Assembly: GCA_018268675.1 (NCBI GenBank)
Contig: JAFDWB010000090.1
Coordinates: forward strand, 1 to 64,000
DNA length: 64,000 nucleotides
From: Actinomycetota bacterium
Lineage (GTDB): Bacteria; Actinomycetota; Thermoleophilia; Solirubrobacterales; 70-9
Direction of reading: 5' to 3'
The translations under genes were made by a program, and so were the position numbers. Shown here in pieces: positions 14,480 to 42,147 of this stretch; the first letter of the stretch is position 1, and each line of letters starts with the position of its first letter. The notes under the pieces were generated by a model. That model had not been told where the DNA came from. It did no database searches and saw nothing but the letters and a program-made list of their open reading frames with translations.

Positions 14480-14606
14480 TCGTCGGAGGGACGCCGTCCC
14501 TCCAGCTGTTCCTTATGCCGGTATATCGACCATAAGGAACAGCTGGACGGGGCCAGGTTCGGGAAAGGGAGGTCCGTCACGGTTCCTCCCGTCTTCCTCA
14601 GGCGCT
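14480..14606. repeat. About 127-bp dispersed intergenic repeat, copy 1, with a central hairpin
   Basis: Closely resembles 33654-33781: shared CAGCTGTTCCTTATG...CATAAGGAACAGCTG core, then GACGGGG, GGAGGTCCGTCAC and TTCCTCCCGTCTTC in the same order. The inner inverted repeat is 14501-14517 / 14531-14547 (17-bp perfect arms, 13-nt loop). It lies between the R2-like oxidase promoter and the convergent-side hydrolase gene. It is not an IS: no transposase frame. Confidence 0.75.
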
Positions 14607-14643
14607 CGGGACCACCTCGGACAGCCGCCCGCGGCCCCGAGGT

Positions 14644-14686
14644 GCGTTCGCACTTATCCACAACTGTTGTGGATAAGTGCGAACGC
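14644..14686. repeat. 43-bp palindrome containing two inverted DnaA-box-like 9-mers
   Basis: Perfect 21-bp arms around a single central T. Each arm contains TTATCCACA (14654-14662 and, inverted, 14668-14676), the classic DnaA-box consensus. The outer GTTCGCACTT part recurs in palindromes at 22149 and 57443. It lies 15 bp after the stop of the MBL hydrolase, so it could equally serve as its terminator. Confidence 0.75.
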
Positions 14687-17589: not shown

Positions 17590-18132
17590 ATGACGGGACG
17601 CGGGAGCATCGCCCTGCTGCTGATCGCTGCGGCGATCCTCCTGCGCCCGTGGGACCGGGACCCGATCCGACGCTTGTTACCCCATGGGGAACAAGCGTCG
17701 GCGGTGGGGGCGTCGGAGCGGCTGCGGGGACGGGTGGAGCGGGCCGTGGACGGCGACACGCTGGAAGTGGCGCTCGCCCGCGGGGGGACGGAGACGGTGC
17801 GGGTGATCGGCGTCGACACGCCGGAGACGGTGAAGCCGGACACGCCGGTCCAGTGCTTCGGGCCGCGGGCGTCGGCCTTCGAGCACCGGACCGTCGAAGG
17901 GCGGCGGGTGCGCCTCCTGACCGGGGTCGAACCGCGCGACTTCTACGGGCGGTTGCTCGCCTACGTCTGGGTCGAGGGACGCCCGCGCGAGCGCTTCCTC
18001 GAGGACGAACTGCTCCGCCGCGGCCTCGCCCGCACGCTCACCTTTCACCCGAACGACCGTTTCGCGGCCCGCTTCGAAACACTTGAGCAAAAAGCAGCGA
18101 CTGCCGGCAAAGGGCTCTGGAATGCGTGTTAA
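17590..18132 (+). CDS. Thermonuclease-like (SNase) secreted or anchored nuclease
   Basis: 180 aa. The N-terminal hydrophobic segment RGSIALLLIAAAILL is a signal peptide or anchor. The SNase OB-fold begins LRGRVERAVDGDTLEV, with active-site residues in VRVIGVDTPETV and RDFYGRLLAYVWV and a C-terminal helix GLARTLTFHPNDRF. It hydrolyses nucleic acids outside the membrane. Between signal and domain an inverted repeat is translated in frame (IRRLLPHGEQAS). ATG at 17590 is preferred over GTG at 17584. It follows the aldolase by about 60 bp. Confidence 0.88.
   Translation: MTGRGSIALLLIAAAILLRPWDRDPIRRLLPHGEQASAVGASERLRGRVERAVDGDTLEVALARGGTETVRVIGVDTPETVKPDTPVQCFGPRASAFEHRTVEGRRVRLLTGVEPRDFYGRLLAYVWVEGRPRERFLEDELLRRGLARTLTFHPNDRFAARFETLEQKAATAGKGLWNAC
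17667..17701. repeat. Inverted repeat inside the nuclease gene
   Basis: CCGACGCTTGTT (17667-17678) and AACAAGCGTCGG (17690-17701) flank CCCC-AT-GGGG, giving a near-perfect 35-bp palindrome with one bulged base. It is translated in the linker between signal peptide and nuclease domain, where extra residues are tolerated. Confidence 0.8.
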
Positions 18133-20768: not shown

Positions 20769-20805
20769 GGGCCGAAAACCGCTCTATATCAGCGGTTTTC
20801 GGCCC
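20769..20805. terminator. Bidirectional terminator, 15-bp perfect stem
   Basis: GGGCCGAAAACCGCT-CTATATC-AGCGGTTTTCGGCCC between convergent genes. The A4/T4 tracts inside the stem and the perfect symmetry suit termination in both directions. It also belongs to the class of long palindromes common in this window. Confidence 0.65.
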
Positions 20806-31981: not shown

Positions 31982-33400
31982 GTGGCTGACGAGGCCAAGA
32001 TCCCGAAGGGAAGGTTCCGCCGCTCGGCGAAATTGGGGTCGATCATCGGGACCCAGGGCGCGCGTTACGCGGGCACCAAGGCGGCCAACGTGGCGCGCTC
32101 CGAGGAGGAGGGCAAGGAGCGCCTCGAAGAGCGCCACCTGGAAACCGCGATGAAGATGGTCGGCGCGCTCGGGCAGATGAAGGGCGCGGCGATGAAGCTC
32201 GGCCAGTTCGCCTCGTTCATCGACACCGAGTTCATCCCCGAGGAGTACCGCGAGATCTACCAGGAGCAGCTCGGCAAGCTGCGCAGCGAGGCGCCCGCGA
32301 TGCCCTGGGAGCAGGTCGTCAAGGTGCTGGAAGAGGAGTACGACGGCGAACCGCTGTCGGAGTACTTCGCCGAGATCGAGCGAGAGGCGTTCGCCGCCGC
32401 CTCGATCGGCCAGGTGCACCGGGCGGAGCTGCTGGACGGGCGGCGGGTGGCGGTGAAGATCCAGTACCCCGGGATCGCCGAGGCGCTCGACGCGGACCTG
32501 CGCAACGCGGGGACGATCGTGCGGCTGGCGCGGGCGATCGCGCCGGGCCTCGACGCCAAGGCGATCGCCGAGGAGCTGCGCGAACGGGTGATGGAGGAGC
32601 TCGACTACGAGTTCGAGGCGCAGAACCAGCGCACGTTCTCGCGCGCCTACCGCGAACATCCGTTCATCTACGTGCCGGAAGTCGTGACGCGGATCTCGCG
32701 CCGGCGTGTCCTCGTCACCGAGCTGGTCGAGGGGATCGGCTTCGAGGCGATCAAGGAGCTCCCCCACGACGACCGCAGCCGCTTCGGCGAGATCGTCTTC
32801 CGCGGCAGCTTCGGCTCGATCTACCACCTGCAGCAGTTCAACGCCGACCCCCACCCTGGCAACTACATCCTGATGGAGGACGGGCGGGTCGCCTTCCTCG
32901 ACTTCGGCATGACGAAGAAACTCGATCGCGAGCAGATCCTGCTCGAGCAGCGGGCGTTCGACGCGGCGTCGCGCGACGACCCGGAGGCGTTCCGCGCGGC
33001 GCTCCACGACCTCGGCTTCGTCAAGAGCCCGTCGAAGCTCGACGCCGAACGACTGCTCGACCACATGCACGCGATCGGCGGCTGGTACGTCGAAGACCGC
33101 GAGGTGGAAATCACCGCGCGGATCGTGATGAAGATCATCGAATCGACCAACGACCCGCGCTCGGAGTACTTCGACCTGATGCGGCGCGAGTCGATCCCCG
33201 CCGACGAGCTGATGGGGCGGCGGATGGAGATCGGCGTCGTCGCCGTGCTCGGCCAGCTGCGGGCGAAGCGGAACTGGCACCGGATCCTCCGCGAGTGGGT
33301 CTACGCCGACGCGCCCGCGACCGAGCTCGGGCGCCAGGAGTGGGAATACTTCGAGGAGCGCGGGCTGAAGCGCACGCCGGGCCTCGCCGACACTCCCTGA
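31982..33400 (+). CDS. ABC1/AarF (UbiB) family atypical protein kinase-like protein
   Basis: 472 aa, GTG start. The UbiB fold has the family-specific MKLGQFAS (KxGQ), the Ala-rich loop [11 protein letters not shown], the ATP-binding Lys in [10 protein letters not shown], the catalytic loop [12 protein letters not shown] and the metal-binding FLDFGMTK. No C-terminal membrane helix is evident. Family members act in isoprenoid-lipid or quinone metabolism as ATPases. Standing alone, followed by an unusual 715-bp palindrome-rich gap. Confidence 0.92.
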
Positions 33401-33433
33401 GCGCGGGAAGCTGTCGCCGAAGCACAAAGGACG

Positions 33434-33483
33434 GGCCGTCTCGGCCACGACCCTGGCGGGCTGTGGCCGTGGCCGAGACGGCC
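33434..33483. repeat. Inverted repeat, 16-bp perfect arms
   Basis: GGCCGTCTCGGCCACG and CGTGGCCGAGACGGCC around an 18-nt loop, 34 bp after the ABC1-kinase stop. It could terminate that transcript, though no T-run follows. Confidence 0.7.
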
Positions 33484-33653
33484 GGGTCTGTGGGGAGAGG
33501 AAGGGCCCGCACGGCGCGCAGGAACACACGGCCCGGTGGGGACGGGACGCCGGGTGTGGAGGACGGGTCGCGAGAGCGGGACGGGAGTGGGCACGGGTCC
33601 GTCCCGAGGTGGGCCCACATGACGAAGACGTCGAGAAGGCCGGGACCTTGTCC

Positions 33654-33781
33654 TCGTCCGGGAGGACGCCCTCCGTCCAGCTGTTCCTTATGGCGCCCTG
33701 GCGACCATAAGGAACAGCTGGACGGGGTCGGGCCAGGAACGGGGAGGTCCGTCACTGTTCCTCCCGTCTTCTTCAGACGCT
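33654..33781. repeat. About 128-bp dispersed intergenic repeat, copy 2, with a central hairpin
   Basis: Same layout as 14480-14606: CGTCCAGCTGTTCCTTATGG / CCATAAGGAACAGCTGGACG arms of 20 bp (33674-33693 and 33705-33724, 11-nt loop), then GGAGGTCCGTCAC and TTCCTCCCGTCTTC. Arms remain perfectly paired although the loops differ between copies, which indicates selection or gene conversion on pairing. Confidence 0.75.
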
Positions 33782-33785
33782 TGAC

Positions 33786-33837
33786 ACGCGCTGCAAGGAT
33801 TCAGGTCGCTATAGCGACCTGAATCCTTGCAGCGCGT
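33786..33837. repeat. Perfect 52-bp palindrome without loop
   Basis: 26-bp arms meeting at GCTATAGC, beginning ACGCGCTGCAAGGATTC. With no unpaired loop it is a candidate cruciform or a two-fold protein-binding site rather than an ordinary RNA hairpin. Confidence 0.85.
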
Positions 33838-33958
33838 CCCGTGGTCTCGGTCCCGGGCCTTCACGGGCGCTCCTCTCACAAAGGACGGTCACGGAAAGGA
33901 CGATCACGGGAGTCCGACTTTGTGACAACCCTGAGGCCGCTCCCCCACGGACCCCTCA

Positions 33959-34018
33959 CGTCCTGGGCGTCTCATGGCGGCCACAGCCTGCCTGGGTCGC
34001 CATGAGACGCCCAGGACG
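33959..34018. repeat. Inverted repeat, 21-bp perfect arms
   Basis: Left arm starts CGTCCTGGGCGTCTC, right arm ends GACGCCCAGGACG, with an 18-nt loop. It is intergenic and unrelated in sequence to its neighbours. Confidence 0.8.
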
Positions 34019-34076
34019 CAACTCGGACGGCCACCCGCGCCCCGAACCTCGTCGTCCTTTCCCCTCCTCGCCCCAC

Positions 34077-34117
34077 AGCTGTTCCTTATGCCGACCAGTC
34101 CGGCAAAAGGAACAGCT
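34077..34117. repeat. Third AGCTGTTCCTTATG-family palindrome
   Basis: AGCTGTTCCTTATGCCG and CGGCAAAAGGAACAGCT pair with one mismatch around a 7-nt loop. It shares the core of the copies at 14501 and 33674 but not their flanks. The right arm runs into the gdpD stop codon, so it may also serve as its terminator. Confidence 0.7.
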
Positions 34118-34847
34118 AACCGTCGGGGTCGGGGTCGAGGCGCTGGAAGAGGCGGGGGTCGTTCGAGACCAGGCCGGTGACGCCCAGGTCGAGGAGCTTG
34201 CGCATGCGGGGCTCGTCGTCGACCGTCCAGGCGATCAGCTCGACGCCGCAGCGCCTGCAGATGCCGGCGAGGCGGGGGCTGACCAACGGGTGGTAGACCC
34301 ACATCGCGAAAACATCGAATTGCGGGAGTTTCTCGGCCGCGAGGCCGGGGAGTTGGAGGCGCATCGCGTAGAGGGCCGCGCGGAGGGCCGGCTTCGCCCA
34401 CGGCCGCCGCGTCCAGTCGCGGCTCGTCTTCGGGAAGGTCCAGCCGCGGCGCAGCTTCGGTTCCAGTTCGAGCACACGTTTCAGCGTGTGCATCTCCATC
34501 GTCGAGATCATCGCCCGGTCGATCAGGTCGCGCTCGCGGAGCGCCTCGACGAACTCCTCCTCGCGCCCCGGCAGCTTGACGTCGAGGTCGATCTCGACCC
34601 GGTCGAGGGGCGGCTCGAGGAACGCGTCGAGGGCCTCGGTCAGCTTCAGCGGCGTGCGGCTGTTCGCGTCCTCCCAGTCGTGGGCGACGATCAGCGGGTG
34701 GCGCTGCGCCGGCGGCAGGTGCGCGTCCGCCAGCCACACCACGTCGAACTCGATCGTGTCGACGCCCGCCTCGACCGCGGCCCGGAAGCTCTCCAGCGTG
34801 TTGCCGGGCGCGATCAGGTCGGCCCCCTTGTGGCCGACGCGCCGCAC
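34116..34847 (-). CDS. Glycerophosphodiester phosphodiesterase family protein
   Basis: 243 aa. A GDPD TIM barrel: [19 protein letters not shown] (the His-Lys/Arg-Gly start and E of the family), [24 protein letters not shown] (second catalytic His) and [10 protein letters not shown]. It hydrolyses deacylated phospholipids to sn-glycerol-3-phosphate and alcohols. No signal peptide, so cytoplasmic. Four bp after prs in the same direction, hence the end of a glmU-prs-gdpD operon. Confidence 0.88.
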
Positions 34848-39369: not shown

Positions 39370-39439
39370 GCCCGCTCCCGGGGGAGACCCGCCGGAACCT
39401 CCCCGCTGTTGTTCCGCCGGGTCTCCCCCGGGAGCGGGC
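39370..39439. repeat. Inverted repeat, 29-bp arms with one mismatch
   Basis: Arms 39370-39398 and 39411-39439 (outer part GCCCGCTCCCGGGGGAGACC) around a 12-nt loop. It lies between a reverse operon's end and the PucR-type gene's promoter, so it can act as the terminator of the dedA/pap2 transcript; the length exceeds usual terminators. Confidence 0.75.
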
Positions 39440-41180: not shown

Positions 41181-41196
41181 CGGGGCGCTCCTCGGG

Positions 41197-41268
41197 GCGG
41201 GGGTGTCGTGACACCCTCCGGACGCGCCTTCGGCGCTGAGTGTCCGGAGGGTGTCACGACACCCCCGC
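41197..41268. repeat. 72-bp palindrome covering the ispE stop codon and the dedA/pap2 leader
   Basis: Perfect 27-bp arms (41197-41223 and 41242-41268; outer part GCGGGGGTGTCGTGACACC) with an 18-nt loop that holds GCGCCTTCGGCGC. Each arm also contains the small palindrome GTGTCGTGACAC. The right arm encodes the last ispE codons and its TGA. It may terminate or attenuate transcription before dedA/pap2. Confidence 0.85.
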
Positions 41269-42147
41269 CAAGCAGACGATCGCGTCATTGCGGTCGAGGG
41301 AGGTGGTTGCTGCCTCGGCTTCGGAAAGGGTTGGGAACAAGGCGACCGCGGTCGGGCCGGAGCCGCTCAGGAAGACGGCGGGGGCTCCGGTATCGCGGAG
41401 GGCGGCGAGGGCGGTGGCGATGTCGGGGCGGAGGCTGATCGCGGCGGGCTCGAGGTCGTTGATCAAGAGGTCGGCGTAGGCGAGGGGCGAGGCGCCTGCG
41501 CCGGCGGCGGTGCGCAGGCGGCCGGCGATCTCCTCCAGCTCCTCCGGGTCCCGGCCGAGCCCCAGCCGGTCGGCCTCGGCGAAGACCGCCGCGGTCGAGA
41601 GCCCGCCGCCCGAGGGCAGCAGCACCGCCGCGTGCTCCGCGGGCGCCGGCAACGGCTCGACCCGCTCCCCCGCCCCCCGGACCAACGCCAGCCCCGGCCG
41701 CAGCTGCGAAGGCACGTCCGCCCCCAACTCCGCCGCAAGCGCCGAAAGCCCGGCAACACCTACCGTCACGGCTGAAGCATTTTGGTTGTCAGGGGACCAA
41801 AATGCTTCAGCCGGGAAGGTGGTGGCGGGGGACGCGAGGCGCAGGACGGCGGCGGCGTCGGCCGAGCCGCCGCCGAGGCCCGCGGCGACCGGGGTGCGCT
41901 TCTCGATCTCGATCCGCAGCGGCGGCGCGTCCCAGCCGCGCTCGCGGAGCTTCGCCAGTGCCCGGGCGGCGAGGTTCTCGCCCTCGACCCCCGGGCAGAC
42001 GACCTCGTCGCGCTCCGCCTCCTCGACCCGCAGCAGGTCGGCCAGCGCCAGCGGCTCGAAGAGCGAGCACAGCTCGTGCAGGCCGTCGGGGCGAGGGCCG
42101 CCGAGGTAGAGGCCGAGGTTCAGCTTCGCGGGGGCGCGGACCAGCAT
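41254..42147 (-). CDS. ispE: 4-diphosphocytidyl-2-C-methyl-D-erythritol kinase
   Basis: 297 aa. GHMP kinase of the MEP isoprenoid pathway: APAKLNLGLYLGGPRPDG, the ATP loop PVAAGLGGGSADAAAVLRL and the C-terminal VFLSGSGPTAVALFP. Between AAVLRL and LSALAAELGADVP about 16 residues more than usual are present; they are encoded by a 43-bp palindrome (AEAFWSPDNQNASA). The C-terminal codons and stop come from a second palindrome. Last housekeeping gene of metG-tatD-rsmA-ispE. No clear ribosome site before the ATG. Confidence 0.93.
   Translation of the reverse strand: MLVRAPAKLNLGLYLGGPRPDGLHELCSLFEPLALADLLRVEEAERDEVVCPGVEGENLAARALAKLRERGWDAPPLRIEIEKRTPVAAGLGGGSADAAAVLRLASPATTFPAEAFWSPDNQNASAVTVGVAGLSALAAELGADVPSQLRPGLALVRGAGERVEPLPAPAEHAAVLLPSGGGLSTAAVFAEADRLGLGRDPEELEEIAGRLRTAAGAGASPLAYADLLINDLEPAAISLRPDIATALAALRDTGAPAVFLSGSGPTAVALFPTLSEAEAATTSLDRNDAIVCLAGVS
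41770..41812. repeat. 43-bp palindrome translated in frame inside ispE
   Basis: GGCTGAAGCATTTTGGT (41770-41786) and ACCAAAATGCTTCAGCC (41796-41812), perfect 17-bp arms, 9-nt loop. AT content is much higher than in the surrounding ispE sequence, which marks it as an insertion. Confidence 0.85.

What the first reader, a model, noticed from the sequence alone, without database searches (positions are those of the whole stretch)
33401..34115. Dense cluster of unrelated long palindromes in a 715-bp gap
Five inverted repeats with 16- to 26-bp arms lie between two convergent genes; one is a loop-free, perfect 52-bp palindrome. Their sequences differ, so simple duplication does not explain them. A process that creates or tolerates long palindromes, or a site where such elements collect, seems to act in this genome.
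Basis: partly seen in the sequence, partly recalled or inferred. Interest (0 to 1): 0.7.

Follow-up and report, generated by a model that had tools for sequence, protein, structure and literature searches.

The report
Mobile palindromes, some inside essential genes
The cluster of DNA palindromes is one copy of a repeated element that has spread, with a dozen other palindrome families, through one group of actinobacteria, sometimes landing in frame inside essential genes, and its mirror-image arms appear to be kept perfect by one arm being copied onto the other.

Summary
The five palindromes are real and far beyond chance, but not unrelated. The 715-bp gap holds one copy of a ~550-650-bp composite repeat (hairpins E, A, G, D), found dozens of times in this Solirubrobacterales-like genome. 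Hairpins 2 and 5 are one family; hairpins 1 and 4 share a 14-nt loop motif in inverted orientation, like terminal inverted repeats. Stems with arms of 16 bp or more occur at 80-123 per Mb in this and two related genomes, against 6-8 in two controls. At the orthologous gap relatives have no such palindrome or a different array. Several families also sit in frame inside conserved genes (ispE in this window, ileS), where relatives are empty or carry another palindrome. Arms co-vary without G-U excess. The 52-bp palindrome looks like an imperfect relative whose left arm was rewritten from its right arm. Best reading: non-autonomous mobile palindromic elements, similar to BIME/REP and Rickettsia palindromic elements, with palindromy maintained by arm-to-arm template switching. 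The mobilising enzyme was not found; Y1 transposase is absent. SbcD is absent too, but also from palindrome-poor relatives, so it does not explain the pattern.

The parts
33401..34075 (+). Composite interspersed element (hairpins E-A-G-D plus conserved linkers), one of dozens of copies in the genome; boundaries approximate
   Evidence: nhmmer and BLAST with the C93 copy; 13-copy alignment
33425..33492 (+). Left terminal hairpin E; loop motif CCTGGCGGGCTGTG at 33452-33465
   Evidence: loop in forward sense in 22 of 22 E hairpins of this genome
33673..33725 (.). Hairpin A (arms CCGTCCAGCTGTTCCTTATGG); 87 half-sites in the genome
33786..33837 (.). 52-bp perfect loop-free palindrome in slot G; left arm appears rewritten from the right arm
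33959..34018 (+). Right terminal hairpin D; loop motif in inverted sense (CACAGCCTGCCTGG at 33982-33995)
   Evidence: inverted sense in 21 of 22 D hairpins
34077..34117 (.). Second A-family hairpin, outside the composite, overlapping the end of the GDPD gene
   Evidence: 81% identical to 33678-33719
31982..33400 (+). ABC1 atypical kinase-like gene flanking the array
   Evidence: Pfam PF03109
34116..34847 (-). Glycerophosphodiester phosphodiesterase gene flanking the array
   Evidence: Pfam PF03009
41769..41813 (.). Family I palindrome lying in frame inside the ispE-like GHMP kinase gene (41254-42147, - strand)
   Evidence: the site is empty in G004, G005 and G009
14501..14686 (.). Family A palindrome (14501-14547) followed by family B palindrome (14644-14686): another intergenic pair
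20769..20805 (.). Family C palindrome
17667..17701 (.). Family J-like palindrome
39370..39439 (.). Family L hairpin (conserved loop, variable arms) next to a gene 3' end

Best explanation
The gap carries a copy of a non-autonomous, hairpin-rich mobile repeat. (1) Shown: many families of palindromes of about 40-75 bp, alone or joined into a composite element of ~550-650 bp, are dispersed through the large-genome members of one genus; they differ in presence at orthologous sites, sit mostly in convergent and tandem gaps, and occasionally lie in frame inside conserved genes. (2) Shown: the composite's outer hairpins carry the same 14-nt loop motif in inverted orientation, as terminal inverted repeats would. 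(3) Supported: arms change in a paired manner without excess of G-U pairs, and symmetric versions match either the left or the right arm of asymmetric relatives, which is the footprint of quasipalindrome correction by template switching in DNA replication. (4) Inferred: an unidentified enzyme acting in trans recognises the hairpin or its exposed loop motif and copies or moves the elements; selection then removes insertions near promoters and out-of-frame insertions.
For: Dispersed families: 87 half-sites of A; 77 of 96 sampled stems fall in families of two or more; composite alignment. Density 79.9, 123.2 and 91.3 per Mb in G000, G006 and G008 against 6.2 and 8.3 in G012 and G009. Clade restriction: the loop motif occurs 49, 264, 99, 60, 15 and 6 times in G000, G006, G008, G007, G011 and G003, and once in the other 145 genomes of the order. 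Loop orientation E forward 22/22, D inverted 21/22. Presence/absence: composite at C82:95.4 kb absent in G006 (534 against 12 bp), and a 1217-bp array in G006 with 7 bp in G000; the focal gap is short and without these hairpins in G001, G002, G004, G005, G007, G009 and G010. In-frame copies: ispE and ileS empty in several relatives. Covariation of the A inner stem: 37 double-changed cells against 13.2 in shuffles, 0/500; same-site paired change in ileS, GCC-A-GGC against CTC-T-GAG. No G-U excess on the sense strand, 38 against 46 A-C. Arm rewriting in slot G: asymmetric copies with centre AT have right arms 1-4 differences from the window arm (mostly 1-2) but left arms 4-6. Context: stems in 18.6% of convergent, 5.4% of tandem and 3.0% of divergent gaps.
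Against: No mobilising enzyme was found: Y1_Tnp is absent from all 12 genus members, and no multi-copy transposase appeared in the sampled fifth of the genome. No target-site duplication could be defined, because empty sites come from relatives at about 85% DNA identity. Paired changes could also reflect replacement by another subfamily copy or ectopic conversion. Loop orientation is hardly ever inverted (1 of 22 D hairpins), so template switching across the loop must be rare or counter-selected.
Confidence: 0.7

Rival explanations
1. The hairpins are RNA elements (terminators, 3'-end stabilisers, antisense-blocking structures between convergent genes), conserved because their transcripts fold.
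For: They are enriched at gene 3' ends and in convergent gaps. Single-strand folding is far below shuffles, z = -16.8 (DNA parameters). Family L loops near gene 3' ends point in the gene's sense direction in 4 of 4 unambiguous G000 cases.
Against: No G-U excess over A-C on the sense strand; no Rfam match at the gathering cut-off other than tRNA; copies lie inside genes; several tandem hairpins per gap are more than a terminator needs.
Confidence: 0.15
2. Independent palindromes arise locally by replication errors in a genome without palindrome surveillance (SbcCD loss), with no mobility.
For: SbcD family model has no match over cut-off in this genome; palindromes are very dense.
Against: Most palindromes belong to dispersed sequence families inside a conserved composite; SbcD is equally absent in palindrome-poor relatives.
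Confidence: 0.05
3. In ispE and ileS a single old insertion was kept and its sequence rewritten in each lineage, rather than different palindromes having inserted independently at a hotspot (a sub-question of the best explanation).
For: The ileS inserts of G000/G006, G008 and G009 all contain GTTCCTT; G000 and G006 share flanks and outer arm and differ only at the apex.
Against: In ispE, G000/G006 carry family I while G008, G011, G003 and G007 carry family B, with little similarity; the ileS site is empty in five relatives, including G011.
Confidence: 0.35

Closest known systems
Rickettsia palindromic elements (RPE; Ogata et al. 2000, 2002, cited in PMC10969869)
   Same: Several palindromic families in one genome, intergenic and in frame inside unrelated conserved genes, with related species empty at the site
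   Different: RPEs are ~150 bp in obligate intracellular alphaproteobacteria; here 40-75 bp (or a composite of ~550-650 bp), 71% G+C, Actinomycetota, mostly intergenic
REP / BIME (bacterial interspersed mosaic elements) with RAYT transposases (PMC3733652)
   Same: Dense palindromes, several units per intergenic mosaic, preference for convergent and unidirectional gaps, species-specific families
   Different: No GTAG or CGTC tag at the foot, stems much longer than the 8-9 bp reported for CGTC families, no Y1 transposase in the genus, no G-U excess
MITEs (miniature inverted-repeat transposable elements; PMC10969869)
   Same: Non-autonomous, short, dispersed, inverted ends, intergenic preference
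   Different: The inverted ends are themselves hairpins with a conserved loop and changing arms; no parent transposon or target-site duplication found
Quasipalindrome template-switch mutation (PMC8794818, PMC7202029, PMC8604942)
   Same: Arms made identical, several paired changes at once
   Different: There a mutation mechanism at single sites; here it appears combined with dispersed families

Membership tests
Rickettsia palindromic elements | Palindromic element inserted in frame in unrelated conserved protein genes | tested here: met
   ispE, ileS and other genes; empty sites in relatives for ispE and ileS
Rickettsia palindromic elements | Element length about 150 bp, as reported for RPEs | tested here: not met
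   In-gene stems here are 37-68 bp, at 71% G+C
REP/BIME | Unpaired GTAG or CGTC tag at the foot of the stem | tested here: not met
   GTAG 1 of 78 and CGTC 9 of 78 in G000, at background rates
REP/BIME | RAYT (Y1 transposase) in the genome for GTAG REPs | tested here: not met
   PF01797 no match in 12 genus members; positive controls ring
REP/BIME | Extragenic, mostly convergent or unidirectional gaps | tested here: met
   18.6% / 5.4% / 3.0% of convergent / tandem / divergent gaps in G000
MITE | Terminal inverted repeats | tested here: met
   Hairpins E and D carry the loop motif in inverted orientation; only the loop, not the arms, is shared
MITE | Target-site duplication | tested here: inconclusive
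   Empty sites found but flanks too diverged
MITE | Autonomous partner with matching ends | tested here: inconclusive
   None seen in 864 kb of 4.2 Mb
Quasipalindrome template switching | One arm becomes the exact complement of the other in clustered changes | tested here: met
   Slot G copies and the ileS pair; direction of change is inferred, not observed
Known Rfam RNA family | Match over the gathering score | tested here: not met
   Only three tRNAs in the window

The most novel reading that the evidence does not exclude
A new class of bacterial mobile DNA whose ends are hairpins with a conserved exposed loop motif (CCTGGCAGGCTGTG) in inverted orientation, moved by a so far unrecognised enzyme, with arms free to change because template switching restores palindromy after each mutation; the same process feeds in-frame peptide insertions into essential proteins.
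Probability: 0.3. Interest if true: 0.85.

Novelty: new variant of a known kind. Interest (0 to 1): 0.66.

Why it matters
In-frame coding palindromes are chiefly known from Rickettsia and some relatives. Here they occur in a GC-rich actinobacterial clade with many families, and with empty-site and rewritten-site pairs within one genus. That makes two old questions testable: how palindromic repeats stay perfect while their sequence changes, and how new peptide segments enter essential proteins. The arrays also break assemblies: several contigs start in them.

Tried and rejected
Y1/RAYT mobilisation: no match in the genus. SbcD loss as the cause: absent order-wide. REP tags: background level. 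RNA selection by G-U excess: none. Known RNA family: none. Viral carriage: no exact match in viral contigs for the A or E patterns. Multi-copy transposase search in sampled genes: only paralogues and a pair of serine recombinase-like genes. The 52-bp palindrome has no other copy within 3 mismatches of its 38-bp core. One search used a wrong query (an arbitrary 60 bases) and only served to list relatives. The AlphaFold model of the ispE protein is weak (mean pLDDT 65.9); the insert (residues 108-129) is among its low-confidence stretches between two helices, which is compatible with a flexible loop but proves nothing. I first read the palindromes at the ispE and ileS sites as independent insertions, and now leave in-situ rewriting open. 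No paper on such repeats in Solirubrobacterales was found with the terms tried.

Full report
Observation. Window 33401-34115 lies between a + strand ABC1 kinase gene (31982-33400) and a - strand GDPD gene (34116-34847). It holds five inverted repeats, one of them a perfect loop-free 52-bp palindrome. Shuffled windows give 0-1 stems with arms of at least 12 bp.

The repeats are families. The half-site AGCTGTTCCTTATG of repeats 2 and 5 occurs 87 times in this 4.2-Mb genome, often in paired copies at a fixed 27-nt offset. In 864 kb (the window plus stretches of four other contigs) there are 104 stems with perfect arms of at least 13 bp, against 4 in each of two order-3 shuffles, and 77 of 96 stems with arms of at least 14 bp fall into shared sequence families (A, D and E merge there by single linkage). 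Two palindrome-poor genomes, G012 (same family, other genus) and G009 (same genus), have 6-8 stems with arms of at least 16 bp per Mb; G000, G006 and G008 have 80-123. The samples from G002, G003 and G007 are smaller (80-98 kb) and give 50, 10 and 92 per Mb, so the contrast within the genus is graded rather than absolute.

The focal array is one element. A copy on contig C93 (16614-17160) finds the focal array and many others. The alignment of 13 copies shows the order E, A, G, D with conserved linkers; some copies carry an extra family B hairpin, and one lacks hairpin G. E at the left and D at the right have different arms but the same loop motif in opposite orientation: forward in 22 of 22 E hairpins and inverted in 21 of 22 D hairpins of G000, inverted in 13 of 13 D and forward in 6 of 6 E hairpins of G006, and forward in 8 of 9 E hairpins of G008. 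This is the layout of terminal inverted repeats.

Distribution. The loop motif CCTGGCAGGCTGTG occurs 264 times in G006, 99 in G008, 60 in G007, 49 in G000, 15 in G011 and 6 in G003, and once in the other 145 genomes searched in the order. Members of the genus with genomes of 2.4-2.9 Mb have none, and neither does G005 (3.4 Mb), though G005 has 10 family A palindromes. Exact family A palindromes were also found in MAG records titled Solirubrobacterales bacterium and Actinomycetota bacterium, which is the basis for the taxonomic label.

Empty sites. The gene order around the window is kept in all genus members. Between the kinase (or the DUF6159 gene that follows it in most relatives) and GDPD, seven relatives have a short gap without such hairpins, G006 has an orthologous array with another palindrome in slot G, G008 has one unrelated palindrome, and G011 and G003 have D-like hairpins with other or degenerate arms. 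Along 75 kb of synteny with G006, the composite at C82:95.4 kb (534 bp) corresponds to 12 bp in G006, and a 1217-bp array in G006 corresponds to 7 bp in G000. So arrays come and go while genes stay. No target-site duplication could be read from these diverged flanks.

Inside genes. Palindromes lie in frame in ispE (window 41769-41813), ileS, an FAD-linked oxidase and other conserved genes. At the ispE site G004, G005 and G009 are empty, G000 and G006 have family I, and G008, G011, G003 and G007 have intact or decayed family B. At the ileS site five relatives are empty, G000 and G006 have family A, and G008 and G009 have other, decayed palindromes; in the G000 protein the insert lies just before the anticodon-binding domain that starts at residue 699. 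Whether these are repeated insertions at permissive loops or old insertions rewritten in place is open.

How the arms stay perfect. In the ileS pair the outer arms are identical between G000 and G006 while the apex changed on both sides, GCC-A-GGC against CTC-T-GAG. Among 28 distinct family A hairpins from three genomes, the inner four pairs show 37 double changes against 13.2 expected by shuffling and 89% pairing against 54% (0 of 500). The outer 12 bp were fixed by the search pattern, so only the inner pairs are informative, and the sequences were copied from the listings. In slot G, asymmetric copies share a left-arm type and a right-arm type; the window's 52-bp palindrome has the right-arm type on both sides, and another subfamily has the left-arm type on both sides. 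Mismatches in stems of tandem gaps show no excess of G-U over A-C on the sense strand (38 against 46). Together this points to arm-to-arm copying in DNA, the quasipalindrome template-switch process described in PMC8794818, rather than RNA selection, though subfamily replacement is not excluded.

Cause and context. Stems avoid divergent gaps (3.0%) and favour convergent ones (18.6%), as reported for REPs (PMC3733652). REP tags and Y1 transposase are missing. SbcD is missing over the cut-off, but order-wide. The enzyme remains unknown; only about a fifth of the genome was examined for multi-copy genes, with a simple home-made gene caller.

Verdict. The cluster is an ordinary member of an unusual population: mobile palindromic elements of the BIME/RPE kind in a new clade, with hairpin ends, in-frame gene insertions and footprints of arm rewriting. 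The core of this (repeat families, clade restriction, empty sites, in-gene copies) is shown; mobilisation in trans and template switching are inferred.

Noticed in passing
window 39370-39439; C91:30071, 80396, 81797, 101217, 120106, 120657, 155380: Family L hairpins: conserved loop (about GAACAACAGCGGGGAGGTTC) with fully different but complementary arms, mostly 5-40 nt past stop codons; 4 of 4 unambiguous cases in G000 point in the gene's sense direction. Possibly a terminator-like RNA element.
   Followed up: partly
window 41196-41269; L141:10898-10973; G002 C14:5021-5099: A long hairpin at the 3' end of ispE with arms of 28 bp; relatives have similar hairpins with other arms and a related loop.
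   Followed up: no
window 33400-34116 and L139-L150: The DUF6159 gene that follows the kinase in most relatives is missing here and also in G009, G010 and apparently G005; in this genome the array sits where it was.
   Followed up: partly
G000 contigs C25, C42, C55, C65, C67, C84, C93 (first ~100-300 bases): Several contigs of this assembly start inside palindromic elements, so the arrays break the assembly and their number is probably underestimated.
   Followed up: no
genus of the window, G000-G011: Genome size and elements go together: members of 3.4-4.7 Mb carry the palindromes, members of 2.4-2.9 Mb lack the composite's loop motif.
   Followed up: partly
C93:60783-60837 and C93:69648: Two hairpins 8.8 kb apart with a related loop (CCTCGCAAGCTGCG / CCTCGCAGGCTGCG) and similar arms, in the same orientation; perhaps a separate related element.
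   Followed up: no
C82:182009-183550 and C82:269165-270700: Two serine recombinase-like genes, 93% identical at protein level, each preceded by a related gene (80.9% identical): possibly two copies of an integrative element.
   Followed up: no
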